Source of the DNA: Maricaulis maris MCS10 | GTDB lineage: Bacteria; Pseudomonadota; Alphaproteobacteria; Caulobacterales; Maricaulaceae | Assembly: GCF_000014745.1 (NCBI RefSeq) | Contig: NC_008347.1 | Location: 992,001-1,056,000, forward strand | Length of the DNA: 64,000 bases | Reading direction: 5' to 3' | Shown here: piece by piece, positions 539 to 29,682 of the stretch | How positions within the stretch are numbered: the stretch's first letter is position 1 | How the letters are laid out: each line of letters starts with the position of its first letter | Notes under the pieces: model-generated | The model's database searches: none | What the model saw: the letters and a program-made list of their open reading frames with translations, nothing else | Told to the model about the DNA's origin: nothing | Translations under genes and position numbers: made by a program

Positions 539-656
539 CATCGCTTGTCAGCCAGCGCGCCAGACGCGATTTGCGAGGTCAAGGGCGCGAAGCGCCGCTG
601 CGCGGTTACACCCTTGAGCTCGCAAATCGCGTCTGGCCATCTCTCGGCAAGCGATG
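539..656. repeat. Variable-arm hairpin repeat, copy 1
   Basis: The outer stem is CATCGCTTG (539-547) against CAAGCGATG (648-656). A perfect 17-bp inner stem pairs 560-576 (CCAGACGCGATTTGCGA) with 620-636. The enclosed core (577-619) begins GGTCAAGGG, contains the mini-hairpin GGCGCGAAGCGCC and ends CCCTTGAGC. The same core occurs at 27351-27393 and, with paired changes, at 29595-29639, but the arms here have a completely different sequence from those two copies. Confidence 0.9.
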
Positions 657-706
657 AATGGGGACGTGGGCGCTGGCGCGCCGTTTCTTGGCTGCAGGTA
701 CATGTC

Positions 707-822
707 GTCATCCCTGATGGACGCCCGGCGCAGGCCGGGCGAAAGTCAGGGACCTGGCTGGTAGCGACCACTTAGGTCCCTGCCCTGCGTCCGGCCTTCG
801 CCGGACATCCGGCAGGGATGAC
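707..822. repeat. GTCATCCC nested-hairpin repeat, copy 1
   Basis: This element of about 116 bp is bounded by GTCATCCC and GGGATGAC. Each half folds on itself: CCCGGCGCAGGCCGGG on the left and GTCCGGCCTTCGCCGGAC on the right. The halves are joined by AGGGACCT/AGGTCCCT, so the whole could form a cloverleaf or cruciform. Near-identical copies lie at 9179, 15785 and 29391, and an inverted diverged copy lies at 23791. Confidence 0.9.
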
Positions 823-875
823 AAGGAAACGTGGTGCGGCCCGTTCCTCCCCACGCGTTGGGGAAAGGGAGCCGT

Positions 876-3239
876 CTAACCCTTCGGCTTGCGCTTCAGC
901 GTGGCGCCCTTCTCGAACGGTTTTCCGCCATCCTTCTTGAAGCCGGGCTTCTTGCCGGCGGGCTTGTCATAGCCGCCGCCCTTTTTCTTGAAGCCACCGG
1001 CGGCCGGTTTGCGCTTGCGGGCCCAGGAGCTGTCCTCGCCCTTGTCGGGGCGGGCATTGGGATTGGTCAGGTCGCCAGCGGGGCGAGCCTTGGCGGCCGG
1101 GCGGTCGTCGCTCGAGGATGTTGGCTTGTCGGCACGGGGACGGCGCGGCTTGTCGTCCTTTTTCCAATCGGACTTGTCGGCCCGGGGCTTTTTCTCCCAG
1201 GGTTTCTCATCGCCACCAACCGGGCTTTCGGCGCGGTCATAGTCCGGCTTTGGCTTGCCCTTGTAGGGACGGTCGCCATCGGCGGCCTTGCCATAGGGTT
1301 TCTTGTCGCCGAATGATTTCTTCTCGTACGGCTTCTTGTCGCCATAAGGCTTCTTGTCGCCATAGGGCTTTTTGTCGCCGAACGGTTTCTTGTCACCGTA
1401 GGGCTTCTTCTCATACGGCTTTTTCTCGTAGCGCGGCTTGTCGCCAGAGCTTTCACCCTCGCGTTCGCGCTGGTCGTGCGGCTTGCGGTCCTCATAGGAG
1501 CGCGGGGCGCTGTCATCGCGATTGCGGCTGACCGGATAGCCGTCACTGTCGGTCTCGCGATGGCGCGACTTCTCGCGGTGACGCATTTTCGGCGTGCGGG
1601 CATCGGTCGGGCCGTCATTGGGACCGGCGCGTTCCATCTGCGAGCCGTCATCCGGGCTGACGCGGATATTGTTCTCGCCGCCGCCATTCTCGGCCAGCGC
1701 CTTGGCGAAGCGGTCGGCATGTTCGGCGTCGATCTCGAAACGGGTTTCGGTCTCGCCGATCTGGATCGAGCCGATCTCGCGCTTGGTGACATGTCCCAGG
1801 CGGCAGATCAGCGGCAGCAGCCAGCGCGGCTCGGCCTTGGCCTTGCGACCGGCCGACAGGCGGAACCAGACACTGGCCTTGAAGTTCTCGCGCGGCTTGC
1901 GCTCGGGACGGTCATTCTGTGCTGCCGGGCCGGACAGAAGGTCCTCGGCCGAGGGCAGGGTCGCCAGGCGGGCGCGCAGGAAGGCGGCGGCCAGTTGCTC
2001 GGCGGTGAATTTCTCGAGCAGGGCGTCCGTGTCGACTTTCATCGCCTCATCGACCGCTTCGGTCAGGATCGGGTCGGCCATCAGGCGTTCGCGGTCGCGG
2101 GCGCGGACATCATCCGAGCTCGGCGCTTCGGCCCATTCGGCCTGCAGCTTGGCATCGCGCAGAAGGCGATTGGCGCGGCCGCGGCGGGTGTGCGGCACGA
2201 TGATCGCGCAGACACCCTTGGCACCGGCCCGGCCGGTCCGGCCCGAGCGGTGCAGCAGCACGTCGGAATTGGTCGGCAGGTCGGCATGGATGACCAGTTC
2301 CAGACCCGGCAGGTCGATACCGCGGGCGGCGACATCGGTCGCCACACAGACGCGGGCGCGGCCATCGCGCAGGGCCTGCAGGGCGTGTGTGCGCTCTTTC
2401 TGGGTCAGCTCGCCGGACAGGGCGACGGCGGCAAAGCCGCGATTGCCGAAGCGGGCGGCCAGACGGTTCACCGCTTCGCGCGTGGCGCAGAAGATGATGG
2501 CGCGCTCGGCATCGTAATAGCGCAGTACATTGATGATCGCATTCTCGCGATCGGACGGGGCGACCGACAGGGCGCGGTATTCGATATCGGCGTGCTGGCC
2601 GCGCTCGGACACCGTCGAGATGCGCAGCGCATCCTTCTGGAAGCGGCGGGCAATATCGGCAATGGCGCGCGGCACGGTGGCCGAGAACAAGAGGGTGCGA
2701 CGGCTCGCCGGGGCCGCGTCGAGAATGTATTCAAGATCTTCGCGGAAACCGAAATCGAGCATCTCGTCGGCTTCGTCCAGGACCACGGCTTTCAGCTGGG
2801 ACATGTCCAGCGCGCCGCGCTCGATATGGTCGCGCAGGCGGCCCGGCGTGCCGACCACGATGTGACAGCCGCGCTCCAGCGCCTTGCGCTCGGCCCGCGG
2901 ATCCATGCCGCCGACACAGGAGGCGATCTGGCCGCGCGCCTCGCCATACAGCCAGGCCAGTTCGCGCTGGACCTGCAGGGCCAGTTCGCGCGTCGGCGCG
3001 ACAATCAGGGCCATCGGCAAGTCGGGCCGGTTGAACTGGTCGTCATCGCCCAGAAGCGTCTTGGCCATGGCCATGCCGAAGGCGGCGGTCTTGCCGGAGC
3101 CGGTCTGGGCCGAAACCAGCAGGTCACGCCCTTCGGCCTCTTCCGCGATCACGGCGGACTGGACTTCGGTGAGGGCGGCATAGCCCTTTTTCTCGAGCGC
3201 AGCGGCAAGGGCCGGCGCAATGCGGGGATTCAAGGTCAT
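876..3239 (-). CDS. DEAD-box RNA helicase with DbpA-type domain and basic repeat tail
   Basis: This is a cytoplasmic ATP-dependent RNA helicase, probably acting in ribosome assembly or RNA remodelling. I place the start at 3239 (protein begins MTLNPRIAPAL, 787 residues) because the 13 extra upstream codons do not look conserved. Visible motifs in order are motif I SAQTGSGKT, DEAD in VLDEADEML, SAT in LFSATVPR, and motifs V/VI in RGIDLPG and HRSGRTGRAG. Residues about 480-560 resemble the DbpA RNA-binding domain. The last 200 or so residues are low complexity, rich in K, R, P, Y and G, with a six-residue KKPYGD-type unit repeated. This makes the protein much longer than the usual 450-600 residue family members. 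The tail probably aids RNA binding or condensate formation (inference). Confidence 0.92.
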   Translation of the reverse strand: MTLNPRIAPALAAALEKKGYAALTEVQSAVIAEEAEGRDLLVSAQTGSGKTAAFGMAMAKTLLGDDDQFNRPDLPMALIVAPTRELALQVQRELAWLYGEARGQIASCVGGMDPRAERKALERGCHIVVGTPGRLRDHIERGALDMSQLKAVVLDEADEMLDFGFREDLEYILDAAPASRRTLLFSATVPRAIADIARRFQKDALRISTVSERGQHADIEYRALSVAPSDRENAIINVLRYYDAERAIIFCATREAVNRLAARFGNRGFAAVALSGELTQKERTHALQALRDGRARVCVATDVAARGIDLPGLELVIHADLPTNSDVLLHRSGRTGRAGAKGVCAIIVPHTRRGRANRLLRDAKLQAEWAEAPSSDDVRARDRERLMADPILTEAVDEAMKVDTDALLEKFTAEQLAAAFLRARLATLPSAEDLLSGPAAQNDRPERKPRENFKASVWFRLSAGRKAKAEPRWLLPLICRLGHVTKREIGSIQIGETETRFEIDAEHADRFAKALAENGGGENNIRVSPDDGSQMERAGPNDGPTDARTPKMRHREKSRHRETDSDGYPVSRNRDDSAPRSYEDRKPHDQREREGESSGDKPRYEKKPYEKKPYGDKKPFGDKKPYGDKKPYGDKKPYEKKSFGDKKPYGKAADGDRPYKGKPKPDYDRAESPVGGDEKPWEKKPRADKSDWKKDDKPRRPRADKPTSSSDDRPAAKARPAGDLTNPNARPDKGEDSSWARKRKPAAGGFKKKGGGYDKPAGKKPGFKKDGGKPFEKGATLKRKPKG
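1301..1440 (-). repeat. Tandem 18-bp coding repeat (KKPYGD units) in helicase tail
   Basis: On the minus strand, repeated codons give the series KKPYGD, KKPFGD, KKPYGD, KKPYGD, KKPYE, KKSFGD, KKPYG. The unit is six codons and is imperfect at the DNA level. Such a tract can expand or contract by slippage without breaking the frame. Confidence 0.85.
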
Positions 3240-3640
3240 ATATAGCTGTTTCCAGTGCCTAATGCCGGTCGCACCCATCAGCGACCGGGTTCCATCGTCG
3301 TCCCGGTAAGGGCGCCGATAGGGCGACTGGCCGGAATAGACGGGGCTTTAGCACGAGATTACCGGCAAAGGCCAATGATGCGGCAGCAGGGCGGTCATGC
3401 AGATGTGGGGGTGAGGCGCGAATGCGTGATCGGCTGGCCAGGAGCGCGCAGTGCAGGTCGTCAGATGACTGGCCTGCACGGTGCCCCGAATCCGGGTGCC
3501 GAATCCGGGTGCCGAATCCGATCCGGTCGCTGCCTGCCATGGCAAGTCTGCGGTCTGAATGATTTATTTGTTTTGCGACAGGACTGTCCTGTGTTGCGCT
3601 CGGCGCGGGCGTGACATTTTAGCTGTGTCGATTCGATTGC
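3240..3640. other. Intergenic region between divergent genes
   Basis: This 401-base spacer lies between the helicase start (minus) and the signalling cassette start (plus). It should hold both promoters. I see a 13-bp direct repeat GAATCCGGGTGCC at 3488 and 3501 with a partial third copy at 3514, and a perfect palindrome at 3578-3592. No convincing gene is present. Confidence 0.6.
3578..3592. promoter_or_regulatory. Perfect 15-bp palindrome upstream of the phosphorelay cassette
   Basis: The sequence ACAGGACTGTCCTGT has 7-bp arms around a single central base. It lies about 49 bp before the GTG start at 3641, next to an AT-rich stretch (TTTATTTGTTTTG), which is where an operator would be expected. 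The binding protein is unknown. It does not match the alphaproteobacterial LexA or CtrA consensus. Confidence 0.45.
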
Positions 3641-4765
3641 GTGATCGACCCCGCAACCGGAGCACTTGCGTTGGAGACAAACCCCGCCGGCTCGGAGCCC
3701 AGACGCTTCCTGATCATCGATGATGACGACCTCGACCGGATGGTGATCGAGCGCAAGCTGGGTCAGATGGAGCCGGGAGCGGTGTGTTGCCATGCGGCGA
3801 CCGCGGATGCCGCGCTTCGCCTGGTCGCCGAGGATCCGGCTTTTGACGCAGCTTTTGTTGATTTCGCCATGCCGGACGAGGACGGGCTGAGTACCATTCG
3901 CGCGCTGCGCCGGCAAAAAGCGCTTGAGCTGGTGCCGGTGATCATGGTCACCGGAAGCGCAGACCCGGTGCTGGCCGCGTCGTCCATTATCGAGGGAGCG
4001 GATGCCTATCTGAGCAAGGAGGACATGACCGATTCGCGGTTTGCCTGGGCATTGGTCAGTGCGTCCGAGCGGGCGAGATTGCGCCGGGAGGCCCGGGCCA
4101 AGGAAATCGCGATGCGTGAATTTGCGTTCAACGCGGCTCATGACCTCAAATCGCCGCTGAACGGTATTACCGGCTTTGCCGCCCTGCTGGCAAAAGCCGT
4201 CGATGACGTATCTCCCCAGGCCCGGGAGTTCGCTTCAAAAATCCGGACCCAGGGCCTCAAGATGGCAGAGATGATCGACTCGATGCTGGACTACGCGATA
4301 GCCGGTGAAGCGATCGGCGAGACCCCGGTCGTCGCCCTGCAGGATGTCGCCGATGATGCCGTCGCTTCGACCCGGGCTGAGCTGGACGCGATCGCCGCCA
4401 GCATTCGTGTGAGCGTGACCGGACAGGCGCCCATGGATCGCATCCAGATCGAGCGCGTCTTGCGCAATCTCATTCTGAACGCGGTCAAATACCGGGCATC
4501 TGCAATCCCCGAAATAGCGATCCGAACCCGCCACGTTGCGGGCACCCTGGCGGTCGAGGTCGCCGACAACGGAGTGGGCGTTCCGTCCGATCTCCGGGAC
4601 CGGATATTCGAACCCATGCAGCGTGCCCATCACCAATCGGTTGACGGGCACGGTCTGGGGCTGGCGATTTCCCGCAAGATCATCAATGCCCATGGCGGCC
4701 GGATCTGGTGCGAGGCAAGACCCGGCGGCGGTAGTCTGTTTACCTTCACCCTGCCCGAGGCCTGA
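3641..4765 (+). CDS. Receiver-histidine kinase (N-terminal REC, HisKA, HATPase)
   Basis: This soluble 374-residue protein has a receiver domain first (about residues 22-145; acidic pocket IIDDDDLD, phospho-acceptor in VDFAMPDEDG, lysine in SKED). A dimerisation helix follows with the H-box FNAAHDLKSPLNGI (about residue 167), then a HATPase with N-box LRNLILNAVKY, G1 DNGVGV and G2 GHGLGLAIS. With no transmembrane segment, the kinase is probably switched by phosphorylation of its own receiver. The GTG at 3641 is the first start after the promoter region. It is followed at a 4-base gap by a second kinase and then a single receiver, so the three genes probably form one relay. Confidence 0.88.
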   Translation: MIDPATGALALETNPAGSEPRRFLIIDDDDLDRMVIERKLGQMEPGAVCCHAATADAALRLVAEDPAFDAAFVDFAMPDEDGLSTIRALRRQKALELVPVIMVTGSADPVLAASSIIEGADAYLSKEDMTDSRFAWALVSASERARLRREARAKEIAMREFAFNAAHDLKSPLNGITGFAALLAKAVDDVSPQAREFASKIRTQGLKMAEMIDSMLDYAIAGEAIGETPVVALQDVADDAVASTRAELDAIAASIRVSVTGQAPMDRIQIERVLRNLILNAVKYRASAIPEIAIRTRHVAGTLAVEVADNGVGVPSDLRDRIFEPMQRAHHQSVDGHGLGLAISRKIINAHGGRIWCEARPGGGSLFTFTLPEA

Positions 4766-4769
4766 TCTG

Positions 4770-6968
4770 ATGACACAAGGCCCACCCACACACATTTCTG
4801 CCCTGCTCACCCGGGTCGGGCGCCATCGCGGGCACCTTATCCTGGCGCTGGTTTCGATCGCGATTTGTGTCGCTGTCATGATTGGCTGGAAGCTGGGTCT
4901 GGAGGCGGTGGTGCGGCTGACGCCAACCTTGTCTCCGATGCAGTTCAACACTGCCTTGGCGCTGTTGCTGGTGGGGCTGGGGGCGGTCGCCGGAAGCTTG
5001 CGGTATCGCTTGGTGGCGGGACTCCTGGCGGGACTGGGGGCCGGCATAGCCGGGCTCTGCCTGGTGGAAATTGCGACCGGATTCAGTCTGGCCCTGGACG
5101 AGTTGTTTCACGCCCACCAATTTGTCGAGCCGGGTGCCGTCCCCGGTCGCATGTCGCCCAACTCGGCGCTGGCAATCCTGTTGATGGGGCTGGCCGTCTC
5201 CTTGCCACAGATACGGGTTGCGGGTCGCCCCCTGCCGGGCGCGGCGATTGCCGCATTCGTATGCAGTGCCGCATCGGTCGGGGCTATCGCGGCCTCGGTG
5301 ATCGGTTACCTGATCGGCGCCGCGGAGGTTTTCGGTTTCGTGCCGGAAACGCGGATGGGTGTGCTGACCACGATCGCGGCAACCTGTCTGGCGGTTCCGA
5401 TCTGCGAGTCGATGCTGGTGGCCCTGCTGAGGCGGCGGCGCTTGCCGATGTTCGGCCTGCTGGGCGGTTTCGGCCTGGCGCTGATAATCGTGCTCGCCTC
5501 TGCGCATAGCGCCATTCGCGATGATGCTCGCAATGCCCGCCGTGCACAGATTGAACTCGAACTGGGATATGTCGCGCGACAGCTTTCGGGAACCATTACC
5601 GACCGGATTCTGGCGGTGGAAGGCATGGCCCAGCGGTGGGCGCGCGTCGGCGGGCTGGCGGAGGATGAATGGCGCGCCGATGCGCTGCGCTACGCGACTG
5701 ACCACCCGATGATCCAGGCGGTCAGCTGGGCTGGTACCGATGGCATATTGACCTGGGTGGAACCGGTAGCCGGCAATGAGCAGGCAGTCGGCCTCGATCT
5801 GTTCAGCTTTCAGGATCGGCGTGCGGTCTATGAGCGCGCCCGCGATACTGGCCGCACAGGGGCAACGCCCGTACTCGAATTCGTGCAGGGCGGGAGTGGA
5901 TTTGTCACCATGTCGCCGGTCTATCTGCAGGGCGGTGAGTTTGATGGGGTCATGAATGCCGTGTTCGAATTGTCGGAGGTCGTCTCGGCCCTGCCGGTTT
6001 CGCCGGTGCTGAGTGAGGTGGATCTCATCCTGGCGGACACGACGGCCCGGATGGTGATGTGGGATCAGGTCCAGATCATGGATGGCGCATTCTTTGTCGG
6101 GATCGGACAGGATGCCGTCGGCGTGCTGCAGCCCCGCCAGGCGATTGCCGATCTGGTGCTGGTTCTCGGTCTGATTTCGGGCGGTCTGGCCTTGCTTGCC
6201 TCCGGGGCCTTTCTTGTCTCAATGTCGCAGAATCGGCAAATCGCCCACACGAACCGTGAGCTCGAACAGGCCAATGCCGAGCTCGACAGTTTTGTTTATC
6301 TGGCCTCGCATGACCTGAAATCGCCGATGCGCGGCATCCGGCAATTGGCGGACTGGCTCGAGCAGGACATGGCCGAGAATTTGTCGAATGATGCCCGACG
6401 ATATCTCGAGCTGATCCACTCGCGTATCGGTCGCCTGCAGGACCTGCTGGATGCGCTGCTGGATTTCTCCAGAATTGGGCGCAATGCGATGGTTCTGACG
6501 ACCGTTGACGTGCTGGAGGAAGTCCGGCGCACGGTCGCCTTGCAGGACCTCCCGGAAGCGTGGACGTTCGAAGTCAATGGCGAGCGCCTGGCAGCGCGGA
6601 CCGACAAGAATTTGCTCTTTGTGATTGTGGCCAATCTCGTCCGCAATGCCGTCAAGCATCATGACCGGGAGGTCGGGCATCTGCAGCTGAGCGTGGCCGG
6701 TGATGTTGATGACTGGACGCTCACCGTGACCGATGACGGGCCGGGGATTCCGCGCCAGATGCAAGCGCGGGTCTTCGAGATGTTCCAGACTCTCAAGGCC
6801 AAGGATGTTGTCGAGGGCAGCGGCATGGGATTGGCGATTGTGTCCAAGGCCGTTGCGCGTTTGGATGGTAGTGTCCGTGTCGAATCAGATCCGACCAAGA
6901 GACGCGGATCCCGGTTTGTTGTTCGATTTCCACTTGTAGTGAGGGAAGCTCATGCACCTGAATCGTGA
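4770..6968 (+). CDS. Membrane sensor histidine kinase with CHASE domain
   Basis: The 732-residue protein starts at ATG 4770 (MTQGPPTHIS), four bases after the preceding stop. Six or seven hydrophobic helices fill about residues 18-250. A periplasmic CHASE-like ligand-binding region follows (about 255-450, with VSWAGTDGILTWVEP and GLDLFSFQDR), then another transmembrane helix (about 460-490), a short coiled coil, HisKA with YLASHDLKSPMRGI and HATPase with DDGPGI and GSGMGLAIV. CHASE domains sense small extracellular molecules, but the ligand here is unknown. It overlaps the downstream receiver by 17 bases. Confidence 0.88.
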   Translation: MTQGPPTHISALLTRVGRHRGHLILALVSIAICVAVMIGWKLGLEAVVRLTPTLSPMQFNTALALLLVGLGAVAGSLRYRLVAGLLAGLGAGIAGLCLVEIATGFSLALDELFHAHQFVEPGAVPGRMSPNSALAILLMGLAVSLPQIRVAGRPLPGAAIAAFVCSAASVGAIAASVIGYLIGAAEVFGFVPETRMGVLTTIAATCLAVPICESMLVALLRRRRLPMFGLLGGFGLALIIVLASAHSAIRDDARNARRAQIELELGYVARQLSGTITDRILAVEGMAQRWARVGGLAEDEWRADALRYATDHPMIQAVSWAGTDGILTWVEPVAGNEQAVGLDLFSFQDRRAVYERARDTGRTGATPVLEFVQGGSGFVTMSPVYLQGGEFDGVMNAVFELSEVVSALPVSPVLSEVDLILADTTARMVMWDQVQIMDGAFFVGIGQDAVGVLQPRQAIADLVLVLGLISGGLALLASGAFLVSMSQNRQIAHTNRELEQANAELDSFVYLASHDLKSPMRGIRQLADWLEQDMAENLSNDARRYLELIHSRIGRLQDLLDALLDFSRIGRNAMVLTTVDVLEEVRRTVALQDLPEAWTFEVNGERLAARTDKNLLFVIVANLVRNAVKHHDREVGHLQLSVAGDVDDWTLTVTDDGPGIPRQMQARVFEMFQTLKAKDVVEGSGMGLAIVSKAVARLDGSVRVESDPTKRRGSRFVVRFPLVVREAHAPES

Positions 6969-7383
6969 AGTGTCCATCCTGCTGGTCGAGGACGATGATA
7001 TCGACGCGGAGGCCGTGGCCCGGGGGCTGCAACAGGCCCGGGTTGCCAATCCGATCGTGCGGGCCCGCAATGGCGAGGAAGCGCTCGCCATCCTGCGGGA
7101 GAAGGATGGGGCGTTGGGGATTGGCCGCCCTTATCTTGTGCTTCTCGACCTGAACATGCCGGTGATGAACGGCATCGAATTCCTCGAGGAATTACGGGCC
7201 GATCCAGCGTTGACCCGGGCTGTGGTCATGGTGCTGACCACCTCGAACGCTGACAAGGACCGAACGGCGGCATTTGATCACCATGTCGCTGCCTATATCC
7301 TCAAGGCCCGCGCCGGCAAGGAATTCGAGGCCGCGGTCAAGCTGATCGGGCATTATTGGCGTTACGTCGAATTTCCTGACTGA
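6952..7383 (+). CDS. Single-domain response regulator (Rcp1-like)
   Basis: The 143-residue protein consists of one receiver domain with no output domain. It shows the acidic pocket VEDDDIDAEA, phospho-acceptor in LLDLNMPVMNG, threonine in VLTTSN and a lysine near YILKARAG. The Rcp1 type typically pairs with SHDLKSP-type kinases such as phytochromes. It overlaps the CHASE kinase gene, which supports co-translation. It likely serves as phosphate sink, shuttle or diffusible output of the cassette. Confidence 0.88.
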   Translation: MHLNREVSILLVEDDDIDAEAVARGLQQARVANPIVRARNGEEALAILREKDGALGIGRPYLVLLDLNMPVMNGIEFLEELRADPALTRAVVMVLTTSNADKDRTAAFDHHVAAYILKARAGKEFEAAVKLIGHYWRYVEFPD

Positions 7384-7422
7384 GCCCGGCTGGCGCTGCA
7401 CGCGGGGGCACCCAGTCCCGTC

Positions 7423-9006: not shown

Positions 9007-9313
9007 CGGTAAGGTCCAATGGGCGTTGAAGTGGCCGGAAAATGGGGTGCCCAGAGCCGCGCATCAACGCCGCCCGATCACCCGCCGGACATCACGCCCG
9101 CGCTCTTGGCCGGGGTCATAGCGGGTACAGCCCGATCCGGCCAGTGCTGGCTGCGGTGAGGACGTGACACGGGAGCTTGTCATCCCTGATGGACGCCCTG
9201 CGAAGGCAGGGCGAAAGTCAGGGACCTAGCTGGTTGCAACATGTTGGTCCCCGCCTTGCGTCCGGCCTGCGCCGGACATCCAGCGGGGATGACAGCAGGG
9301 GAGAACCCCGCGT
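9007..9313. other. Intergenic region with one nested-hairpin repeat
   Basis: The gap separates the ABC-F gene and a secreted-protein gene, both on the minus strand. The 9179-9293 repeat occupies its right half. The left half should hold the ABC-F promoter, but no clear motif is seen and no gene is apparent. Confidence 0.6.
9179..9293. repeat. GTCATCCC nested-hairpin repeat, copy 2
   Basis: This 115-bp element has the same ends and internal hairpins as the copy at 707-822. The left internal hairpin reads GCCCTGCGAAGGCAGGGC and the right GTCCGGCCTGCGCCGGAC. The stems are kept although several bases differ from copy 1. It is nearly identical to the copy at 15785-15899. Confidence 0.9.
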
Positions 9314-10222: not shown

Positions 10223-10293
10223 GACAGATCCCGTTTGCATGGATCCTGTCTAGCAGGGCGGGTTTGATGCCGCGTGAAGAAGGGTGGTTAATG

Positions 10294-10315
10294 CTTAGCG
10301 AATTCAATCGCTAAG
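10294..10315. promoter_or_regulatory. 8-bp inverted repeat between BcsB-like and secreted-protein genes
   Basis: CTTAGCGA and TCGCTAAG are perfect inverted arms around ATTCAA. The site is just downstream of the BcsB-like stop and about 70 bp upstream of the next gene's start. It could be an operator for the secreted-protein gene or a weak terminator hairpin. No T-run follows, so an operator seems slightly more likely. Confidence 0.4.
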
Positions 10316-10324
10316 ATTGATCCC

Positions 10325-12022: not shown

Positions 12023-12079
12023 GAAACGCTCCCTCACCCGTTTACAAACTATTAAGCAATTGGGCTGCCAGCAATCGAA

Positions 12080-12418: not shown

Positions 12419-12483
12419 CCAATCCTTAAGGGGATGGCGCTAGGTTGTGGATTGCAAACCGTTCTACTAGCTCCGAGTCCGTC

Positions 12484-16390: not shown

Positions 16391-16433
16391 GCCGAAAGAC
16401 TGGCATGTGCCCGACGGTCGGGGAAGGGTTTGC

Positions 16434-19966: not shown

Positions 19967-20053
19967 CGGGCTTCCTGATAGCAATTTCTGCCCTGTCTAG
20001 TGATGCCGCCTTAAATCGTGGATAAGCCGTCCGGTAAAATTCGAACTATCTGC

Positions 20054-20068
20054 GGTTTTATTAAAACC
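20054..20068. promoter_or_regulatory. Palindrome in the divergent GGDEF-EAL / ion channel promoter region
   Basis: GGTTTTATTAAAACC has perfect 7-bp arms around one T. It lies in the AT-rich 203-bp spacer between the GGDEF-EAL start (19966) and the channel start (20170). This looks like an operator that could act on either promoter. The binding factor is unknown. Confidence 0.4.
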
Positions 20069-20169
20069 ATGATCTGGCAGCAGATGATTGAATTTCAACG
20101 GAGACAGGGCTAGGAGCAGCGCAGCATGGCCGCAGGACAGGCGGCGTGTCGGCGGCTTTGGGGGATCAA

Positions 20170-22910: not shown

Positions 22911-22976
22911 GCTATAGCCACCCCTCTCGGGCTTAGTCTAAGGCCTGCCAATCGAGGCCAAATTCAGGCGTTTGTC

Positions 22977-23441
22977 ATGTCATTGCCTTTCTGGAAGATG
23001 AAATCTCTCGGCGAGATGAGCAAATCGGAATGGGAGTCGCTGTGCGACCATTGCGGCAAATGCTGTCTGATCAAGCTGGAAGACGAGGATACCGGCCTCA
23101 ACCTGGACACCGATGTCGCCTGCAAGCTTTACGACTGCAACAAGGGCGGCTGCCGCCACTACGCCAACCGTCACACCCATGTGCCCGACTGCGTCGTCCT
23201 GACGCCGGACAATGTCCCCAAACTCAAATGGATCCCGCAAACCTGCGCCTACCGCCTGATCGCCGAAGGCCGCGACTTGTTCGACTGGCACCCGCTGAAA
23301 ACCGGCGACCCCGAGAGCACCCGCAAGGCCGGCATGTCGGTGATCGGCCGGGTGACGTCCGAAACCCAGTTCTCCGATCCCGACAGTGTCGACTGGGAAG
23401 CGCGGATCACGGAATGGCCGGGTGAGGGGGATGAGGATTGA
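22977..23441 (+). CDS. YcgN / UPF0260 family CxxCxxCC protein
   Basis: The start at ATG 22977 (MSLPFWKMKSLGEMSKSEW) gives 154 residues, the usual family length. The N-terminal cysteine cluster CDHCGKCCLIKLEDEDTG and later cysteines (ACKLYDCNKGGCRHY, PDCVVL, TCAYRL) suggest a metal or iron-sulfur site. The family function is unknown. It is divergent from the penicillin-binding protein gene with a 66-bp shared promoter region. Confidence 0.88.
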   Translation: MSLPFWKMKSLGEMSKSEWESLCDHCGKCCLIKLEDEDTGLNLDTDVACKLYDCNKGGCRHYANRHTHVPDCVVLTPDNVPKLKWIPQTCAYRLIAEGRDLFDWHPLKTGDPESTRKAGMSVIGRVTSETQFSDPDSVDWEARITEWPGEGDED

Positions 23442-23446
23442 GGCTC

Positions 23447-23471
23447 GGTCAGTCTGACTGATCCGGTTTTT
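23447..23471 (+). terminator. Rho-independent terminator after the ycgN-like gene
   Basis: A hairpin with arms GGTCAGT and ACTGATC around CTG is followed by CCGG and five Ts. It begins 6 bases after the stop codon at 23441. Confidence 0.65.
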
Positions 23472-23472
23472 C

Positions 23473-23570
23473 ATTTTTCCCGGGCGAAGACCCGGGACCA
23501 ACCGACCTTGTTTGGAGGCGATGAGTTTCCCGTTGGTCCCGGATAGCGCTGCCGCGCTTCCGGGAAAAAT
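23473..23570. repeat. ATTTTTCCCG palindromic repeat, copy 1
   Basis: The ends ATTTTTCCCGGG and TTCCGGGAAAAAT pair. Inside, GGGACCAAC and GTTGGTCCC form a second stem around an unpaired centre. A related element lies at 27501-27625, sharing the right half CGTTGGTCCCGGATAGCGCT. Confidence 0.75.
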
Positions 23571-23624
23571 GTGTGAGTCGGGGGCGCAGAGATTTCAATG
23601 CAATTCGAAATCTCCCCCAACTCC

Positions 23625-23725
23625 ACCGTCATCCCCCGGCTTGTCCGGGGGACCTCGTCCACCCTGTCACCGGCGAAGCAAAGGTCCCCCGGATCGCTGC
23701 TGCGCATCGACCGTGGGATGACGGT
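23625..23725. repeat. Diverged GTCATCCC-type palindrome
   Basis: The element starts ACCGTCATCCC and ends GGGATGACGGT. Inner pairing includes GGGGGACCT with AGGTCCCCC. The middle differs from the main nested-hairpin family, so this is either a subfamily or a decayed member. The fragment at about 402-427 has a similar start. Confidence 0.6.
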
Positions 23726-23790
23726 TGGGAGTTGCCGTCGTGCAGTGGGGCGGCTCACGCCAGCCTGGCAACAACGCCCCTCCCACACTT

Positions 23791-23917
23791 GTCATCCCCG
23801 CAGGATGTCCGGCGCAGGCCGGACGCATGGCGGGGACCCATGTGCCCGCCACCAGCCAGGTCCCGGGCTTGCGCCCGGCCTGCGCCCGGCCTGCGCCGGG
23901 CGTCCACCCGGGATGAC
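23791..23917. repeat. GTCATCCC nested-hairpin repeat, inverted diverged copy
   Basis: The left end GTCATCCCCGCAGGATGTCC corresponds to the reverse complement of the right end of the other copies, so this member is inverted relative to them. It is about 127 bp. A short CCCGGCCTGCG unit is duplicated in its right half, which explains the extra length. Confidence 0.75.
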
Positions 23918-24004
23918 AAGGGAGTGGCTCCCGCCCGTCCCGAATGCCCGGCATTTTCACGATCGGCTTTACCGGCGCGCAACCCTGCTCGCGGTCCGGT
24001 GTTT

Positions 24005-24023
24005 CAAATTCGAGCCAAATTCG
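24005..24023. promoter_or_regulatory. CAAATTCG direct repeat with 11-bp spacing upstream of GTA g1
   Basis: CAAATTCG occurs at 24005-24012 and 24016-24023, exactly one helical turn apart, about 200 bp before g1. This is a possible binding site for a GTA activator or part of the promoter. No family consensus was available to test it. Confidence 0.3.
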
Positions 24024-24146
24024 TCACAACGGCCATCAAGCAGGACGCGCCACCGATCGTCCTTTGCCATGAAACCAGTGACATTCCCCCCGGCGGGGTC
24101 CGATCGCGGGGATAAACCCGCGACTATCCCCGTATCTGTCCCGAAG

Positions 24147-24180
24147 AACCCGTGACCGTCCAGTCGGTTGCGGGTTTTTT
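24147..24180 (+). terminator. Rho-independent terminator in the GTA leader
   Basis: The stem AACCCGTGACCG pairs with CGGTTGCGGGTT (two G-T pairs) around the loop TCCAGT and is followed directly by six Ts. It lies 46 bases before the g1 start and after any obvious upstream promoter space. No complete gene upstream needs it, since the ycgN-like gene already has its own terminator 700 bases away. Confidence 0.75.
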
Positions 24181-24225
24181 CGTGGACGATATCCGCCCGG
24201 TCGCGGCGTCGGCCTATTGTTCGGC

Positions 24226-24762
24226 ATGACTGGAAAACCCGGACGCGGCCGCCGCGACAAGATGGATATCTATCCTGGATATCTGATGTTCCTGAACGGC
24301 GAGACGGTCGAGGCGATTGCCAAATCCTTCAACCTCACAACCGCCCACATGCGCAAGCGGATCAATGAGCTGCGGGCGCTTGACCCAGGAGAGCTGGATG
24401 CGATCCGCGACGAGGCTTTGGAGCGTCGCCGTCGGCAGGTGGAGATCGAGTTTCTGAGGGGCGACCCCCTCAAGGCGACACGCTTGGCCAATGCCGATGC
24501 GGCGCTCCGCAAGGTCGACCGCGCCAGGACCGAAGCATCGGAAAGCCTCTCAACACCCAAGACAACAGACGAAGAGGACGCGATCGATGACGCAGCCCAG
24601 CAAGCTCGCGACGATGCTTTCCTTCGTCGATACATTCTGGATGCAGACGATGCGCGAGCGGGAGAGGGCGTGGCACAAGGAGGCGGATCGTCAGGAAAGA
24701 GACGCGATCCATACCGACTTCCGCCACCGCGCGACGGGCCCGCAACTGCCGCCGCCGGGTGA
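24226..24762 (+). CDS. GTA g1: small terminase-like protein
   Basis: The position directly before the large terminase and the N-terminal helix-turn-helix-like segment (GETVEAIAKSFNLTTAHMRK) identify this 178-residue protein as the g1 homologue. It would bind DNA and feed it to the packaging motor. The ATG at 24226 is preferred to a TTG three codons upstream. The C-terminal 58 or so residues overlap the g2 gene in another frame (24587-24762). They turn Gly/Pro-rich at the end and may be less constrained. Confidence 0.72.
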   Translation: MTGKPGRGRRDKMDIYPGYLMFLNGETVEAIAKSFNLTTAHMRKRINELRALDPGELDAIRDEALERRRRQVEIEFLRGDPLKATRLANADAALRKVDRARTEASESLSTPKTTDEEDAIDDAAQQARDDAFLRRYILDADDARAGEGVAQGGGSSGKRRDPYRLPPPRDGPATAAAG

Positions 24763-25939
24763 GTGGCTGACCTGGCTCTTCCTGGGTGGGCGCGGTGCCG
24801 GCAAGACCCGCGCCGGCGCCGAATGGGTGCGCCACCGGGCGCTGCGTACGGTCAGCCGGATCGCCCTGGTGGGGCCGACTTTCAATGATGTCCGCGAAGT
24901 GATGATTGAGGGGCCCTCGGGCCTGAAACATCTGGGAAGCGCAATGGAAAGACCGCGCTATGAGGCCAGCCGAAAGCGTCTGGTCTTTCCATCCGGCAGC
25001 CAGGCCTATGCCTTTTCCGCCGAGGATGCGGACGGGCTGCGCGGGCCGCAATTTGACTATGCCTGGGGTGATGAGTTCGCGGCCTGGCCGGACCCGCAAC
25101 GTGTCCTCGACACGCTGCGCATGGGGGTGAGGCTGGGCGGCGCGCCGCGGATATTGCTGACCACCACACCGCGCCCGATCCCGGCGCTGAAAGCCCTGGT
25201 CAAGGCCTGGGATCCGCGCGGTCCCATCCGTGTGACCCATCAGCCGACCGCTGCCAATGCCGCCAATCTGGCGCCCGGCTTTGTCGAGGCGCTCAACGCC
25301 GCCTATGGCGGCTCGATGCTGGGGCGGCAGGAGGTGGAAGGCCTGTTGATCGATGATCCCGATGGCGCCTTGTGGACACGGCCCAAGATTGAGGCGGCGC
25401 GCCTTGCTGCCGGGCAGATGCCGGAGCTGGACCGCATCGTCGTTGCGCTCGACCCGCCGGCGACCGGCGGTCCGCGCTCCGATGAATGCGGGATTGTGGT
25501 GGCCGGCGCGCACGGCGAGGGCCCGGCGCGGATTGCCGTGGTGCTGGCGGACCTGTCCTTCGGTCCCGCTCTGCCCGCCGACTGGGCCGCGCGGGCGGCC
25601 TCCGCCTTTGACGATTACAGCGCCGACGCCCTCATCGCCGAAGCCAACCAGGGCGGCGAAATGGTGCGCTCGGTCCTGCAGGCCGCCGCGCCGGGACTGC
25701 CGGTGCGCCTCGTCCATGCCAGCCGCGGCAAGCGTGCCCGCGCCGAACCGGTTGCGGCCCTCTATGCCGCCGGACGGGTCCGCCATGCGCGACCCTTCCC
25801 GGCGCTGGAAGACCAGATGTGCGCCTTTGGAGCGCCCGACGGCCCCAAATCCAGCCCCGACCGCGTCGATGCGCTGGTCTGGGCGATCAGCGATCTCGTG
25901 CTGGGCCGGACGGGCGCGCCGCGTCTGCGGCGGCTTTAG
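24587..25939 (+). CDS. GTA g2: large terminase subunit (packaging ATPase/nuclease)
   Basis: The 450-residue motor protein cuts and translocates host DNA into GTA heads. The ATPase has Walker A LGGRGAGKTRAG (residues 66-77) and a Walker B/catalytic segment DYAWGDEFAAWPD. The RNase H-like nuclease domain shows acidic residues in VVALDPPATGG, ALIAEANQGGE and SPDRVDALVWA. ATG 24587 has AGAGGA eight bases upstream. A later Met (24614) would still give a full Walker A. It starts inside g1. Confidence 0.93.
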   Translation: MTQPSKLATMLSFVDTFWMQTMRERERAWHKEADRQERDAIHTDFRHRATGPQLPPPGEWLTWLFLGGRGAGKTRAGAEWVRHRALRTVSRIALVGPTFNDVREVMIEGPSGLKHLGSAMERPRYEASRKRLVFPSGSQAYAFSAEDADGLRGPQFDYAWGDEFAAWPDPQRVLDTLRMGVRLGGAPRILLTTTPRPIPALKALVKAWDPRGPIRVTHQPTAANAANLAPGFVEALNAAYGGSMLGRQEVEGLLIDDPDGALWTRPKIEAARLAAGQMPELDRIVVALDPPATGGPRSDECGIVVAGAHGEGPARIAVVLADLSFGPALPADWAARAASAFDDYSADALIAEANQGGEMVRSVLQAAAPGLPVRLVHASRGKRARAEPVAALYAAGRVRHARPFPALEDQMCAFGAPDGPKSSPDRVDALVWAISDLVLGRTGAPRLRRL

Positions 25940-25977
25940 TCACCCGTTTCAAACTTCAATCCAGAAAGGAGCCCACC

Positions 25978-27033
25978 ATGCCCCACTGGCTCGACCGGCT
26001 GTTTGGCCGGGAGGAAAAATCGGCTCTGTCCAGCCGTCTGATTGCCCTGACGGCGGGGACGCGGTCGGCCTGGTCGCCGCGCGCGCTGCCGGCGATGATG
26101 CAGGCCGGCTATGCCCGCAATGCCATTGTCCATCGCTGTGTCCGGCTGACGGCGGAGGCGGCGGCCTCGGTGCCGCTCGCCGCGTCGGACGGTGCCATCA
26201 CCCGCCTGCTCGACATGCCCAATCCGGACCAGTCCGGGCCGGAGCTGTGGGAAAGTCTCTATGGTTATCTACAGCTGGCGGGAAATGCCTATCTGGAACT
26301 TGCCAGCCTGGCCGATGAACCCCGCGCGCTACACCTTCTGCGGCCGGATCGTATGCGTGTGCTGGCCGGGCCGACCGGCTGGCCGGACGGGTGGGAATAC
26401 GCCGCCGCCGGCCGGAAGCGGCGTTTCCAGCGGGACCGGGTCTCGGGTCGCAGCCCGGTTTTCCACATCCGCCTCTTTCATCCCGGCGATGATCATTACG
26501 GCCTGTCACCGCTGGAGGCGGTCGGCCGGGCGCTGGATCTTCATACTGCCGGCTCCGATTGGGCGCGCGCCCTGCTCGACAATGCGGCGCGGCCGTCCGG
26601 GGCGCTGGTCTTCAAGGGCGAAAACGGCCAGCTCTCGCCGGACCAGTTCGAACGCCTGAAGGCCGAGCTGGAAGCCAGCCATACCGGCGCCGCCAATGCC
26701 GGCCGGCCGCTGCTGCTGGAAGGCGGGCTCGACTGGACGCCGATGGCGCTCAGCCCGGCCGAGATGGATTTCACCACCGCCCGCCGCGAAGCCGCCCGCG
26801 AGATCGCGCTGGGGCTCGGCGTGCCGCCGCTTCTGCTGGGCCTGCCCGGCGACAATACCCACGCCAATTACGCCGAAGCCAATGCCGCCTTCCTGCGCCA
26901 GACCGTGCGTCCGCTGGTGATGAAAATGGCCCGCGCCCTGAGCGTCTGGCTGCGGCCCTGGTCTGTGCCTGACCTCGAGATACGGCCGGACTTTGCCGCG
27001 CTCGAGGAAGCCGGGGAGGCGCGCCATGCGTGA
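25978..27033 (+). CDS. GTA g3: portal protein (HK97 family)
   Basis: The 351-residue protein forms the ring through which DNA enters the head. ATG 25978 is preceded by AGAAAGGAG. Portal-family features include RNAIVHRCVRLTAEAAASVPL near the N-terminus, ELWESLYGYLQLAGNAYLEL, GLSPLEAVGRALDLH and ALGLGVPPLLLGLPGDNTHANYAEA near the C-terminus. It is followed by g3.5 with an 8-base overlap. Confidence 0.93.
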   Translation: MPHWLDRLFGREEKSALSSRLIALTAGTRSAWSPRALPAMMQAGYARNAIVHRCVRLTAEAAASVPLAASDGAITRLLDMPNPDQSGPELWESLYGYLQLAGNAYLELASLADEPRALHLLRPDRMRVLAGPTGWPDGWEYAAAGRKRRFQRDRVSGRSPVFHIRLFHPGDDHYGLSPLEAVGRALDLHTAGSDWARALLDNAARPSGALVFKGENGQLSPDQFERLKAELEASHTGAANAGRPLLLEGGLDWTPMALSPAEMDFTTARREAAREIALGLGVPPLLLGLPGDNTHANYAEANAAFLRQTVRPLVMKMARALSVWLRPWSVPDLEIRPDFAALEEAGEARHA

Positions 27034-27265
27034 GATCGACAACTGGACGGTCCAGAAACAGGTCACCCTCGGCCTGATCTTCGCCATCCTCCTGCAAACC
27101 TCCGGCGCCCTGATCTGGTCCGGCCGCGTCGGCGAACGCCTCGACCAGCTCGAACATGTCAGCGACCGCGCCAGCCCGCTGGCGGAAAGGCTGGCGAGAC
27201 TGGAAGCCGAGATGCGCCTGGCCAGGGAGAGCCTGGTGCGGATCGAGCGGCGGATGGAGGAGTGA
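27026..27265 (+). CDS. GTA g3.5: small membrane/coiled-coil protein
   Basis: ATG 27026 overlaps the portal stop, giving 79 residues (MREIDNWTVQKQVTLG). A single hydrophobic helix (VTLGLIFAILLQTSGALIW) is followed by a heptad-like region ending in RLEAEMRLARESLVRIE. Position and size match g3.5 of the RcGTA cluster. Its role in particle formation is not established. Confidence 0.78.
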   Translation: MREIDNWTVQKQVTLGLIFAILLQTSGALIWSGRVGERLDQLEHVSDRASPLAERLARLEAEMRLARESLVRIERRMEE

Positions 27266-27305
27266 TTTTTCGTCGATTTTAAAGTGAGGCGCCGCTGCGC
27301 TCACC

Positions 27306-27439
27306 CATCCATTCATCGCTTGCCGAGACGTCGCCGCATCCGGTTTTCCAGGTCAAGGGCGCGAAGCGCCGCTGTGCGGTTACACCCTTGAGCTGGAAAA
27401 CCGGATGCGGCCTGCTGGCTGACAAGGGATTTATGGATG
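27306..27439. repeat. Variable-arm hairpin repeat, copy 2
   Basis: The outer CATCCAT (27306-27312) pairs with ATGGATG (27433-27439). A perfect 17-bp inner stem pairs 27334-27350 (CCGCATCCGGTTTTCCA) with 27394-27410. The 43-nt core (27351-27393) differs from copy 1 at one base. Flanks outside the inner stem (CTTGCCGAGACGTCG on the left) match the right side of copy 1 in reverse complement. Confidence 0.9.
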
Positions 27440-27500
27440 ATTACGCGCCGACGGCGCTGAATTTCCAACTCTATTCCAACTCCCATCTGCCCGAGCAACA

Positions 27501-27625
27501 CGCACTTTTCCCGGCCGCAGCCGCGCGAAGACGCGGCGGAGAGCCGGGACCGACCGAACGTGCCTTGAAACGCTAAGTCTCCCGTTGGTCCCGGATAGCG
27601 CTGGCGCGCTTCCGGGAAAAATGCG
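27501..27625. repeat. ATTTTTCCCG palindromic repeat, copy 2
   Basis: The end CGCACTTTTCCCGG pairs with CCGGGAAAAATGCG, and the inner GGGACCGAC can pair with GTTGGTCCC through a G-T pair. The left half carries an extra internal hairpin (CCGCGCGAAGACGCGG). It shares its right half with 23473-23570. Confidence 0.75.
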
Positions 27626-27676
27626 TGGGGGCGCGCCCCGTAAATCGTCATTTCCTCCCAAACCCGGAGCCCCCTC

Positions 27677-28111
27677 ATGACTGACACCCTCGTCATCGAG
27701 GGTCATGCGAGCCTGTTCGGGCTGGCTGACCTTGGCGGCGATGTGGTGGCGCGTGGCGCCTTTGCTGCTTCGCTCGCCACCCGCCGCACCATCCCCATGC
27801 TGTTCCAGCACGACCCGTCCGAGCCGGTCGGCCTGTGGACTTCGATCACCGAGGACGCGCGCGGCCTGTTTGTGCGCGGCGAGATCCTGACCTCCGGGGC
27901 CCGGGGCCGGGCGACGGCGGCGCTGGTCCGGCGCGGCGCGGTAGACGGGCTTTCCATCGGTTTTCGCACCCGCGCCGCCACGCCGCGAGAGGCGCGCGGC
28001 CGGGTGCTGACCGCGATCGATCTCTGGGAGGTCTCCATCGTGACCTTCCCCATGCTGCCCCAGGCGCGCCTGCGCCTTGTGGCTCCGGCGCGCAACCGCG
28101 TCGCCGCCTGA
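27677..28111 (+). CDS. GTA g4: prohead protease
   Basis: The 144-residue serine protease of the HK97 prohead family trims the capsid protein during maturation. The His motif is MLFQHDPSEPVG and the Ser motif is AVDGLSIGF, with WEVSIVTFPMLPQA after it. A GGAG site precedes the ATG by seven bases. It is followed 51 bases later by the capsid gene. Confidence 0.9.
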   Translation: MTDTLVIEGHASLFGLADLGGDVVARGAFAASLATRRTIPMLFQHDPSEPVGLWTSITEDARGLFVRGEILTSGARGRATAALVRRGAVDGLSIGFRTRAATPREARGRVLTAIDLWEVSIVTFPMLPQARLRLVAPARNRVAA

Positions 28112-28162
28112 CTTTCCACCTTTTGACAACTCCCACCCTTTTTCCAACCCCAGGAGATTTAT

Positions 28163-29374
28163 GTGAGCAAGGAAACCAAGATGACCGCCGCGACCGGTGA
28201 CAGCCGCGCGGTGATGGGCGAGCTGCTGGCTGCCTTCGAACAGTTCAAACAGGCCAATGACCAGCGCCTCGCCGAGATCGAGACCCGCGCCGCTGCCGAT
28301 GTGCTGCTGGAGGACAAGGTCGCCCGCATCGACAAGGCGCTCGACAGCCAGAAATCCGCGCTCGACCGTCTCGTCCATGAAGCGGCCCGTCCCGGCCTCG
28401 CTCCGGGTGCCGACAGGTCGGCGGCCTCGACGGGCTTTGCCGCCTATATGCGCAGCGGCCAGCTGGCCGAAGGCAAGTCCGCCACGGCCGGCACGCCCGG
28501 TGAGGGCGGTCATGTCGTGCCGGCCGAAACCGAGGCCCGGATCGACCGGCTGCTGGCCGAAGCCTCACCCATTCGCGCCATCGCCACGGTGCGCCAGACC
28601 GCGTCCGGCACCTTCCGCAAGCCGGTCTCGCGCGGCGGGGCGGCGACGGGCTGGGTGTCCGAAACGGCGGCCCGCCCGGAAACCGATGCGCCCAGTCTCG
28701 AACTGATCGAGTTTCCCGCCGCCGAGCTTTACGCCATGCCGGCCGCCACCCAGCAATTGCTCGATGACGCCATGGTCGATGTCGAGGACTGGCTGGCCGA
28801 GGAGGTCCGCGACGTCTTCGCCGCCCAGGAAAGCGCCGCCTTTGTCTCCGGCGACGGCATCAACAAGCCGCGTGGCCTGCTGGACTACACTGCCGTCGCC
28901 GAGGGCACCCAAGCCTGGGGCGAGCTCGGCTATGTCGCCACCGGCACGGCGGGCGGGTTTGACGCGACAGATCCCGCCGACGCGTTGATCGATCTCATCT
29001 ATGCACCCAAGACCGCCTATCGCGCCAAGGGCCGCTTCCTGATGAACCGCCAGACCGTCTCCGCCGTGCGCCGCTTCAAGGATGCCGACGGCAATTATCT
29101 CTGGCAGCCGGCGCTGGGCGAGGGGGCGAGTTCGACCCTGCTCGGCTATCCGGTCACCGAGGCCGAGGACATGCCCGATATCGGCACTGACAGCGCCTCG
29201 ATCGCTTTTGGTGACTTCGCCCGCGGCTATCTGGTGCTGGACCGCCAGGGCGTCGAAGTCCTGCGCGACCCGTTCAGCGCCAAACCCTATGTCCTCTTCT
29301 ACACCACCAAGCGCGTCGGCGGCGGAGTGCAGGATTTCGAAGCGATCAAGCTGCTGAAGTTTGGTGTGAGCTGA
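28163..29374 (+). CDS. GTA g5: major capsid protein (HK97 fold)
   Basis: The 403-residue protein starts at GTG 28163 with AGGAG 6 bases upstream; the nearby ATG 28161 is out of frame. Residues 1-100 form a helical delta/scaffold region (LLAAFEQFKQANDQRLAEIE) expected to be removed by g4. Cleavage would fall near GTPGEGGHVVPAE. The HK97 core follows, with IRAIATVRQTASGTFRKPV, GDGINKPRGLLDY and VLRDPFSAKPYVLFYTTKRVGG. Two repeat elements follow its stop immediately. Confidence 0.94.
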   Translation: MSKETKMTAATGDSRAVMGELLAAFEQFKQANDQRLAEIETRAAADVLLEDKVARIDKALDSQKSALDRLVHEAARPGLAPGADRSAASTGFAAYMRSGQLAEGKSATAGTPGEGGHVVPAETEARIDRLLAEASPIRAIATVRQTASGTFRKPVSRGGAATGWVSETAARPETDAPSLELIEFPAAELYAMPAATQQLLDDAMVDVEDWLAEEVRDVFAAQESAAFVSGDGINKPRGLLDYTAVAEGTQAWGELGYVATGTAGGFDATDPADALIDLIYAPKTAYRAKGRFLMNRQTVSAVRRFKDADGNYLWQPALGEGASSTLLGYPVTEAEDMPDIGTDSASIAFGDFARGYLVLDRQGVEVLRDPFSAKPYVLFYTTKRVGGGVQDFEAIKLLKFGVS

Positions 29375-29390
29375 GTTCGGGAACCTGTTT

Positions 29391-29506
29391 GTCATCCCTG
29401 ATGGACGCCCGGCGAAGGCCGGGCGAAAGTCAGGGACCTATGTGATTGCAGACAGTTAGGTCCCCGCCCTGCGTCCCGCGTTCGCGGGACATCCGGCGGG
29501 GATGAC
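29391..29506. repeat. GTCATCCC nested-hairpin repeat, copy 4
   Basis: This 116-bp copy begins 17 bases after the capsid stop. The right internal hairpin is GTCCCGCGTTCGCGGGAC rather than GTCCGGCCTTCGCCGGAC: both sides of the stem changed together, so pairing is kept. Confidence 0.9.
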
Positions 29507-29552
29507 AAATGTTTGTAGCGTTGGTGTGACGCCCCTCCGGGCGCCCACCCCG

Positions 29553-29682
29553 CCATACATCCCTTGCCGGGACGTCGCCGTATCCGGTTTTCCAGGTCAA
29601 GGGCGGCGCAGCCGCCGCTGCACGGTTTCACCCCTGAGCTGGAAAACCGGATACGGCCTGCTGGCCGACAAGGAATGTATGG
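29553..29682. repeat. Variable-arm hairpin repeat, copy 3
   Basis: The outer CCATACAT (29553-29560) pairs with ATGTATGG (29675-29682). The perfect 17-bp inner stem is 29578-29594 (CCGTATCCGGTTTTCCA) with 29640-29656. Compared with copy 2 the arm has one C-to-T change matched by a G-to-A on the other arm. The core mini-hairpin is GGCGGCGCAGCCGCC, again with both sides changed. It ends one base before the antisense gene's stop codon. Confidence 0.9.

What the first reader, a model, noticed from the sequence alone, without database searches (positions are those of the whole stretch)
539..29682. Dispersed hairpin repeats with a conserved core and interchangeable, perfectly self-complementary arms
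Three elements (539-656, 27306-27439, 29553-29682) share a 43-45 nt core but are flanked by 17-bp arms that pair perfectly within each copy. Copy 1 uses a wholly different arm sequence (CCAGACGCGATTTGCGA) from copies 2 and 3 (CCGCATCCGGTTTTCCA and CCGTATCCGGTTTTCCA). The C/T difference between copies 2 and 3 is matched on the opposite arm, and the core mini-hairpin also changes on both sides (GGCGC-GAA-GCGCC versus GGCGGC-GCA-GCCGCC). Structure, not sequence, is being kept. That points to a structured RNA, a cruciform-binding site, or arms corrected by copying within the hairpin. I know of no named family with this pattern.
Basis: seen in the sequence. Interest (0 to 1): 0.72.

Follow-up and report, generated by a model that had tools for sequence, protein, structure and literature searches.

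The report
Self-copying palindromic DNA repeat family
These are scattered copies of a bacterial palindromic DNA repeat whose two hairpin arms stay identical, most likely because one is now and then copied onto the other, while the piece between them is sometimes turned round in place.

Summary
The window's genome holds 41 complete copies of a roughly 185-bp intergenic element: GCGC hairpins at both feet, an imperfect outer stem, an internal loop with two distinct sides (S and G), 18-bp arms, and a head with two mini-hairpins. Arms differ between copies but pair within each.

In 40 orthologous pairs from three Maricaulis genomes, arm changes are mostly two-sided (41 two-sided, 26 one-sided; about 4 and 159 expected if independent). 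In the outer stem of the same elements it is 2 against 82. Most two-sided changes are transversions, and three loci carry the head flipped in place. This favours DNA copying between arms (template switching) over selection on an RNA.

The core also occurs in Hyphomicrobiales, Xanthobacteraceae, Aquisalinus, Marinicaulis, Oceanicaulis and Acidobacteria; arms are poorly paired in the five Acidobacteria sites. No Rfam match, RAYT dependence, target duplication or published name turned up. How copies spread is unknown.

The parts
513..682 (+). Element 1, full extent with foot hairpins; head in S-G state (S end on the left)
513..527 (+). Element 1, foot hairpin on the S side (CTGCG...CGCAG)
   Evidence: read; foot hairpins conserved
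539..547 (+). Element 1, left half of the outer stem (CATCGCTTG)
548..558 (+). Element 1, S side of the internal loop (TCAGCCAGC...)
559..576 (+). Element 1, left arm
577..619 (+). Element 1, head: GGTCAAGGG / two mini-hairpins / linker / CCCTTGAGC
620..637 (+). Element 1, right arm, perfect complement of 559-576
638..647 (+). Element 1, G side of the internal loop (..TCTCTCGG)
648..656 (+). Element 1, right half of the outer stem (CAAGCGATG)
27288..27457 (+). Element 2, full extent with foot hairpins; head in G-S state
27333..27350 (+). Element 2, left arm
27351..27393 (+). Element 2, head
27394..27411 (+). Element 2, right arm
29530..29703 (+). Element 3, full extent with foot hairpins; head in G-S state
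29577..29594 (+). Element 3, left arm
29595..29639 (+). Element 3, head
29640..29657 (+). Element 3, right arm

Best explanation
The three elements are members of a dispersed, non-coding, intergenic palindromic DNA repeat family (a REP/MITE-like kind of repeat, roughly 185 bp). Shown: the anatomy; a conserved head and ends; arms free in sequence but paired; two-sided arm changes at fixed chromosomal loci; and in-place inversion of the head at one well-supported and two less certain loci. Inferred: the arms stay complementary because one arm is copied onto the other at the DNA level, by template switching during replication when the palindrome folds; the same event, when it spans the head, turns the head round. 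Also inferred: the element is (or was) mobile, since copies with identical arms sit at unrelated places and copy number varies between species, but the enzyme that moved it is unknown.
For: Arms in the window's genome: 666 cells (18 pairs x 37 distinct copies), 95 two-sided changes, 0 one-sided standard changes (G-U), 6 unpaired. 115 copies in three genomes: 33 of 2069 arm cells not Watson-Crick (5 G-U) against 239 of 1498 in the outer stem of 107 of them (76 G-U). 40 orthologous pairs: 41 two-sided, 26 one-sided, 2 other of 759; expected if independent 3.9 and 159; 27 of the 41 two-sided are transversion type; outer stem in 36 of these pairs: 2 two-sided, 82 one-sided, 7 other of 504. 14 pairs whose arms are unique in their genome, so with no donor copy among those parsed: 30 two-sided against 7 one-sided. 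In-place head inversion: C1:748682 against G010 C1:723827, both flanks matched at 87% and 96%, unique arms with three compensated differences; also 678511/403045 and 901036/634164 with one flank each. A second lineage repeats it: 26 copies in Hyphomicrobiales MAG S144_35 have 442 of 442 arm cells Watson-Crick against 394 of 442 in the outer stem, and head orientations 15 to 10 with 1 unassigned; two more copies near contig ends also have 17 of 17. Template switching is described as homogenising inverted-repeat arms and inverting spacers, with a transversion bias in bacteria (PMC8604942, passages; PMC8794818, passages).
Against: The parser and the model favour paired arms, so badly broken copies are under-counted; the decayed place 1188712 has imperfect arms. 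In an arm-blind set of 126 sites, 76 have all 16 tested pairs; the five Acidobacteria sites have 7-10 of 16 and the three Aquisalinus sites 12-13 of 16, so perfect arms are not universal. G-U pairs do occur (12 of 992 cells in 62 Maricaulis sites). One-sided changes (26) exist in orthologs. The 40 pairs are not independent (three genomes share loci), 2 pairs with S on opposite sides and 1 with unrelated arms were dropped, and a little over half of the 43 rest on one flank. The conserved G.G mismatch at the arm/head border (30 of 37) is not corrected, so copying must stop short of it or it is selected. No direct test of the mechanism.
Confidence: 0.6

Rival explanations
1. Structured RNA: the element is transcribed and selection keeps the stem, so compensatory changes accumulate one after the other.
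For: Strong covariation, deep minimum energy, conserved head across phyla, wobble asymmetry in the outer stem (76 G-U against 29 C-A when read S to G).
Against: Two-sided changes outnumber one-sided in arms and are mostly transversions; G-U very rare in arms; the outer stem behaves the opposite way; head occurs in both orientations; no Rfam family at gathering score, and only sub-threshold, mostly microRNA matches otherwise.
Confidence: 0.14
2. A dedicated hairpin-resolving or transposition enzyme acting in trans (in the manner of terminal resolution of parvovirus hairpins, an analogy recalled, not tested) nicks the folded element and recopies one arm, giving both perfect arms and flip/flop of the T-shaped head.
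For: Same topology of head, both orientations in two distant lineages, conserved head and ends, patchy high copy number.
Against: Orientation is mostly inherited with the arm: among 70 copies with an exactly shared arm only 8 are in the minority orientation, so flipping is not obligatory at each move. Y1 (HUH) transposases are absent from the window's genome and from 5 of 8 other carrier genomes. No candidate enzyme found.
Confidence: 0.14
3. Ectopic gene conversion between copies: whole arm-head-arm units are overwritten by another copy, so both arms change together.
For: Many copies share arms; explains shared arm types, and probably some orthologous differences (901036/634164 also differ in head sequence).
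Against: In 14 pairs both arms are unique in their genome's parsed set yet differ two-sided 30 times; the outer stem and loops do not change along.
Confidence: 0.08
4. Site-specific invertase acting on the conserved CAAGGG/CCCTTG repeats, with arm identity a by-product.
For: Head flips in place and is bounded by invariant inverted repeats.
Against: The G.G mismatch just inside the arms turns with the head, so the exchange lies in the variable arms; an invertase would not explain two-sided substitutions.
Confidence: 0.04

Closest known systems
REP/REPIN (GTAG-tagged) repeats with RAYT transposases
   Same: Dispersed intergenic palindromes, patchy copy number, hairpins at both ends
   Different: No GTAG beside the hairpins in the end consensus; RAYT family (PF01797) absent from the window's genome and other carriers; RAYT genes of the genus carry other repeats (GGGACAG/GGGGACAC)
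CGTC-tagged REPs (PMC3733652, passages and section 16)
   Same: Palindromic, common in alphaproteobacteria, said to lack a dedicated transposase
   Different: Those are 20-40 bp with 8-9 bp stems and 4-5 b loops; this element is roughly 185 bp with an 18-bp arm and a two-hairpin head
Template-switch homogenisation of inverted repeats (PMC8604942, PMC8794818; passages)
   Same: Arm homogenisation, spacer inversion, transversions
   Different: Described there for yeast genes and RNA genes; loop inversions were rare (6 with and 69 without a compensatory change in Table 1 of PMC8794818); here a whole repeat family shows it at fixed loci
Parvovirus-type hairpin ends, flip/flop (recalled, not looked up)
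   Same: T-shaped head on a stem, both orientations
   Different: Chromosomal, interspersed, no Rep-like partner found

Membership tests
REP/REPIN (GTAG) | GTAG tetranucleotide beside the hairpin | tested here: not met
   End consensus of 109 S sides and 108 G sides shows none
REP/REPIN (GTAG) | RAYT (Y1_Tnp) in the genome or flanking relation | tested here: not met
   Absent in the window's genome and in 9 of the 14 carrier genomes of the genus in that search; absent in 5 of 8 other carriers; the 11 Y1 loci L074-L084 (9 of them in the genus) show no element
CGTC REP | 20-40 bp, CGTC tag | tested here: not met
   Length and end consensus against PMC3733652 passages
MITE of a DDE transposon | Target-site duplication | tested here: not met
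   No excess of flanking direct repeats of 3-9 b over shifted partners in 107 copies; no clean empty site
MITE of a DDE transposon | Terminal inverted repeats | tested here: inconclusive
   Outer stem is an imperfect inverted repeat, 239 of 1498 cells unpaired or wobble
Rfam RNA family | Score above gathering cut-off | tested here: not met
   whole window: 0 matches; 6 matches at most 27 bits, all far below cut-off
Inverted repeat kept by template switching | Two-sided arm changes in one step, spacer inversion, transversions | tested here: met
   (pattern met; single-step origin inferred)
Structured RNA | Transcription | not testable with these tools
   No expression data

The most novel reading that the evidence does not exclude
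A chromosomal hairpin-resolution system: an unidentified enzyme, shared between Alphaproteobacteria and Acidobacteria, recognises the T-shaped head, nicks the folded element and recopies one arm from the other, so that arms act as freely varying, always self-complementary tags (a hexamer in the Hyphomicrobiales copies) and the head flips, a bacterial counterpart of parvovirus flip/flop.
Probability: 0.12. Interest if true: 0.85.

Novelty: new variant of a known kind. Interest (0 to 1): 0.62.

Why it matters
Perfect compensatory change in hairpins is usually read as proof of a selected RNA. This family offers a built-in control, arms against outer stem of the same element at the same locus, that separates DNA copying from selection, and it does so in dozens of loci per genome. 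It warns that covariation statistics can be produced by DNA copying, and it makes the rate of template switching and spacer inversion in bacteria measurable from ordinary genome comparisons.

Tried and rejected
RAYT/REP mobilisation: rejected as a requirement. Classical MITE: no target duplication, no clean empty site; the two orthologous sites read closely in G010 carry half-element remnants left by deletion (992578 and 1112898). An autonomous partner sharing the S end: the S motif occurs at 45 places in the genome, most next to known copies; the others were listed but not examined. Replication terminus as the cause of clustering: GC skew does not change sign in 892-1192 kb. A common neighbouring gene: in the two Acidobacteria loci looked at (L285, L289) ORFs differ; identification there was by eye, no family search. 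Plasmid hits for a core query: none. Alignment A4 misplaced the linker gap and was not used for a model; A5 replaced it. The automatic orientation call was inconsistent and was replaced. The alignments of whole intergenic regions were too mixed to read an empty site.

Full report
Setting. The window is bases 992001-1056000 of a single-contig 3,368,780-base genome. I take it to be Maricaulis maris MCS10 from its size (recalled; no call names it). Elements 2 and 3 lie in a cluster whose ORFs read like a phage or gene-transfer-agent head operon (portal, protease, capsid, recognised by eye, no family search).

The observation. The three elements are present as described, fold far better than shuffles as DNA, and belong to a family. 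A covariance model of arms plus head (38 copies) finds 42 places in the genome. Forty-one are complete; the weakest, C1:1188712, is decayed with imperfect arms and was left out; two truncated copies were read. A search with the core alone, blind to the arms, gives 21 places, all 21 among the 41.

Anatomy. From outside in: a small GCGC hairpin, a spacer, an outer stem CCATAAAYCGCTTG/CAAGCGRTTTATGG, an internal loop whose two sides have different conserved sequences (S: TCAGCCAGC; G: CYCGG read towards the foot), an 18-bp arm, then GGTCAAGGG, two mini-hairpins, a 5-6 base linker and CCCTTGAGC. The head is asymmetric (linker on one side), which fixes its orientation. It occurs both ways relative to S and G: 24 S-G, 16 G-S and 1 partly assigned in G000; 32, 19 and 1 in G018; 8, 13 and 1 in G010. 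Copy 1 of the window is S-G, copies 2 and 3 are G-S.

Arms against outer stem. In 37 distinct copies 666 arm cells hold 95 two-sided changes, no one-sided standard change and 6 unpaired cells. Over 115 copies in three genomes 33 of 2069 arm cells are not Watson-Crick (5 G-U), against 239 of 1498 (76 G-U) in the outer stem of 107 of them. The parser asked for at least 13 of 20 paired bases, so badly broken copies are under-represented; the arm-blind checks address this in part.

Orthologous loci. Flank matching gave 43 reciprocal-best pairs between G000, G018 and G010, 19 with both flanks. Two with S on opposite sides and one with unrelated arms (1771286/194597) were dropped. In the other 40, at 19 paired positions each (759 after leaving out N), 41 changes are two-sided, 26 one-sided and 2 other; with flank divergence as the rate and independence, 3.9 and 159 are expected. 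Twenty-seven of the 41 are transversion type and cannot pass through G-U. In the outer stem of 36 of these pairs the counts are 2 two-sided, 82 one-sided, 7 other of 504. Fourteen pairs have arms found nowhere else in the parsed set of their genome; they still show 30 two-sided and 7 one-sided changes, so overwriting by another copy cannot explain them. The pairs are not independent, as one locus can give up to three.

Flips in place. At C1:748682 (S-G) the G010 ortholog C1:723827 is G-S: both flanks match (87%, 96%), S lies on the same side, the arms are unique, and three arm positions differ on both sides. The G018 ortholog at the same locus is S-G. Two more loci, 678511/403045 and 901036/634164, show the same with one matched flank (77%, 91%); the last also differs in head sequence. 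Flipping is occasional: of 70 copies sharing an exact arm, 8 are in the minority orientation.

Distribution. In 61 relatives 21 have matches: 16 of 19 in the genus (0 in G004, G013, G017), 0 of 18 in other genera of the family, 5 weaker ones of 24 in the order. In 385 genomes of the class 5 have matches, the own genome included. A second model (A5) gives 95 matches in Hyphomicrobiales MAG S144_35, 31 in Aquisalinus, 31, 27, 15, 12, 6, 3, 2 and 1 in eight others chosen because they had a hit; a place may count on both strands.

Second lineage. In S144_35, 26 copies parsed have 442 of 442 arm cells Watson-Crick, with 17 different hexamers at arm positions 4-9 inside otherwise constant arms; the outer stem has 394 of 442; the head orientation is 15 against 10, 1 unassigned. 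Two copies near contig ends have 17 of 17. Against universality: in 126 arm-blind sites 76 have all 16 tested pairs, while five Acidobacteria sites have 7-10 and three Aquisalinus sites 12-13 of 16.

How it works. Copying one arm from the other during replication (template switching) accounts for two-sided transversions, for the lack of G-U, for the contrast with the outer stem beyond the internal loop, and for in-place inversion of the head. The literature seen in passages describes just these two products (PMC8604942; PMC8794818). The single-step nature is inferred. How the element multiplies is not known: no target duplication, no clean empty site, no dependence on Y1 transposases. Thirty-three of 34 copies in the three long stretches are intergenic by a crude ORF caller (15 tandem, 11 convergent, 7 divergent).

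Known or new. No Rfam family, and no paper naming it in the open-access searches. It works like inverted repeats under template switching; as a repeat it resembles REPs but fails their defining features that were tested.

Noticed in passing
G000 C1 about 0.62-1.37 Mb: 25 of 41 copies fall in one 750-kb stretch (2000 random draws: mean maximum 14.7, highest 21); no skew change there, cause unknown.
   Followed up: partly
Hyphomicrobiales MAG S144_35 (G061), arm positions 4-9: A hypervariable hexamer, 17 kinds in 26 copies, always repeated as its complement, inside otherwise constant arms.
   Followed up: partly
L074-L076, L078 and L081-L084: Y1/RAYT genes of the genus are surrounded by GGGACAG/GGGGACAC repeats, like the GGGGWSAS motif of PMC3733652; such repeats also flank several of the palindromic elements.
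   Followed up: partly
window 700-800 and 29400-29510: Another dispersed repeat (GTCATCCC..., with a GGCCGGGC-type stem) crowds the intergenic regions; possibly a CGTC-type REP (not tested).
   Followed up: no
outer stem of Maricaulis copies: Read from S to G, G-U pairs (76) exceed C-A mismatches (29), a strand asymmetry that could hint at a folded strand or simply at shared ancestry.
   Followed up: no
L272, L279, L291, L237, L253, L293, L219, L264: In Hyphomicrobiales 134-614, Marinicaulis, Oceanicaulis and Aquisalinus a second palindrome stands beside the element instead of an outer stem around it.
   Followed up: no
L229, L255, L262, L289, L285: Acidobacteria copies share nearly the same arm and outer stem though neighbouring ORFs differ where looked at (L285, L289); arms are poorly paired.
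   Followed up: partly
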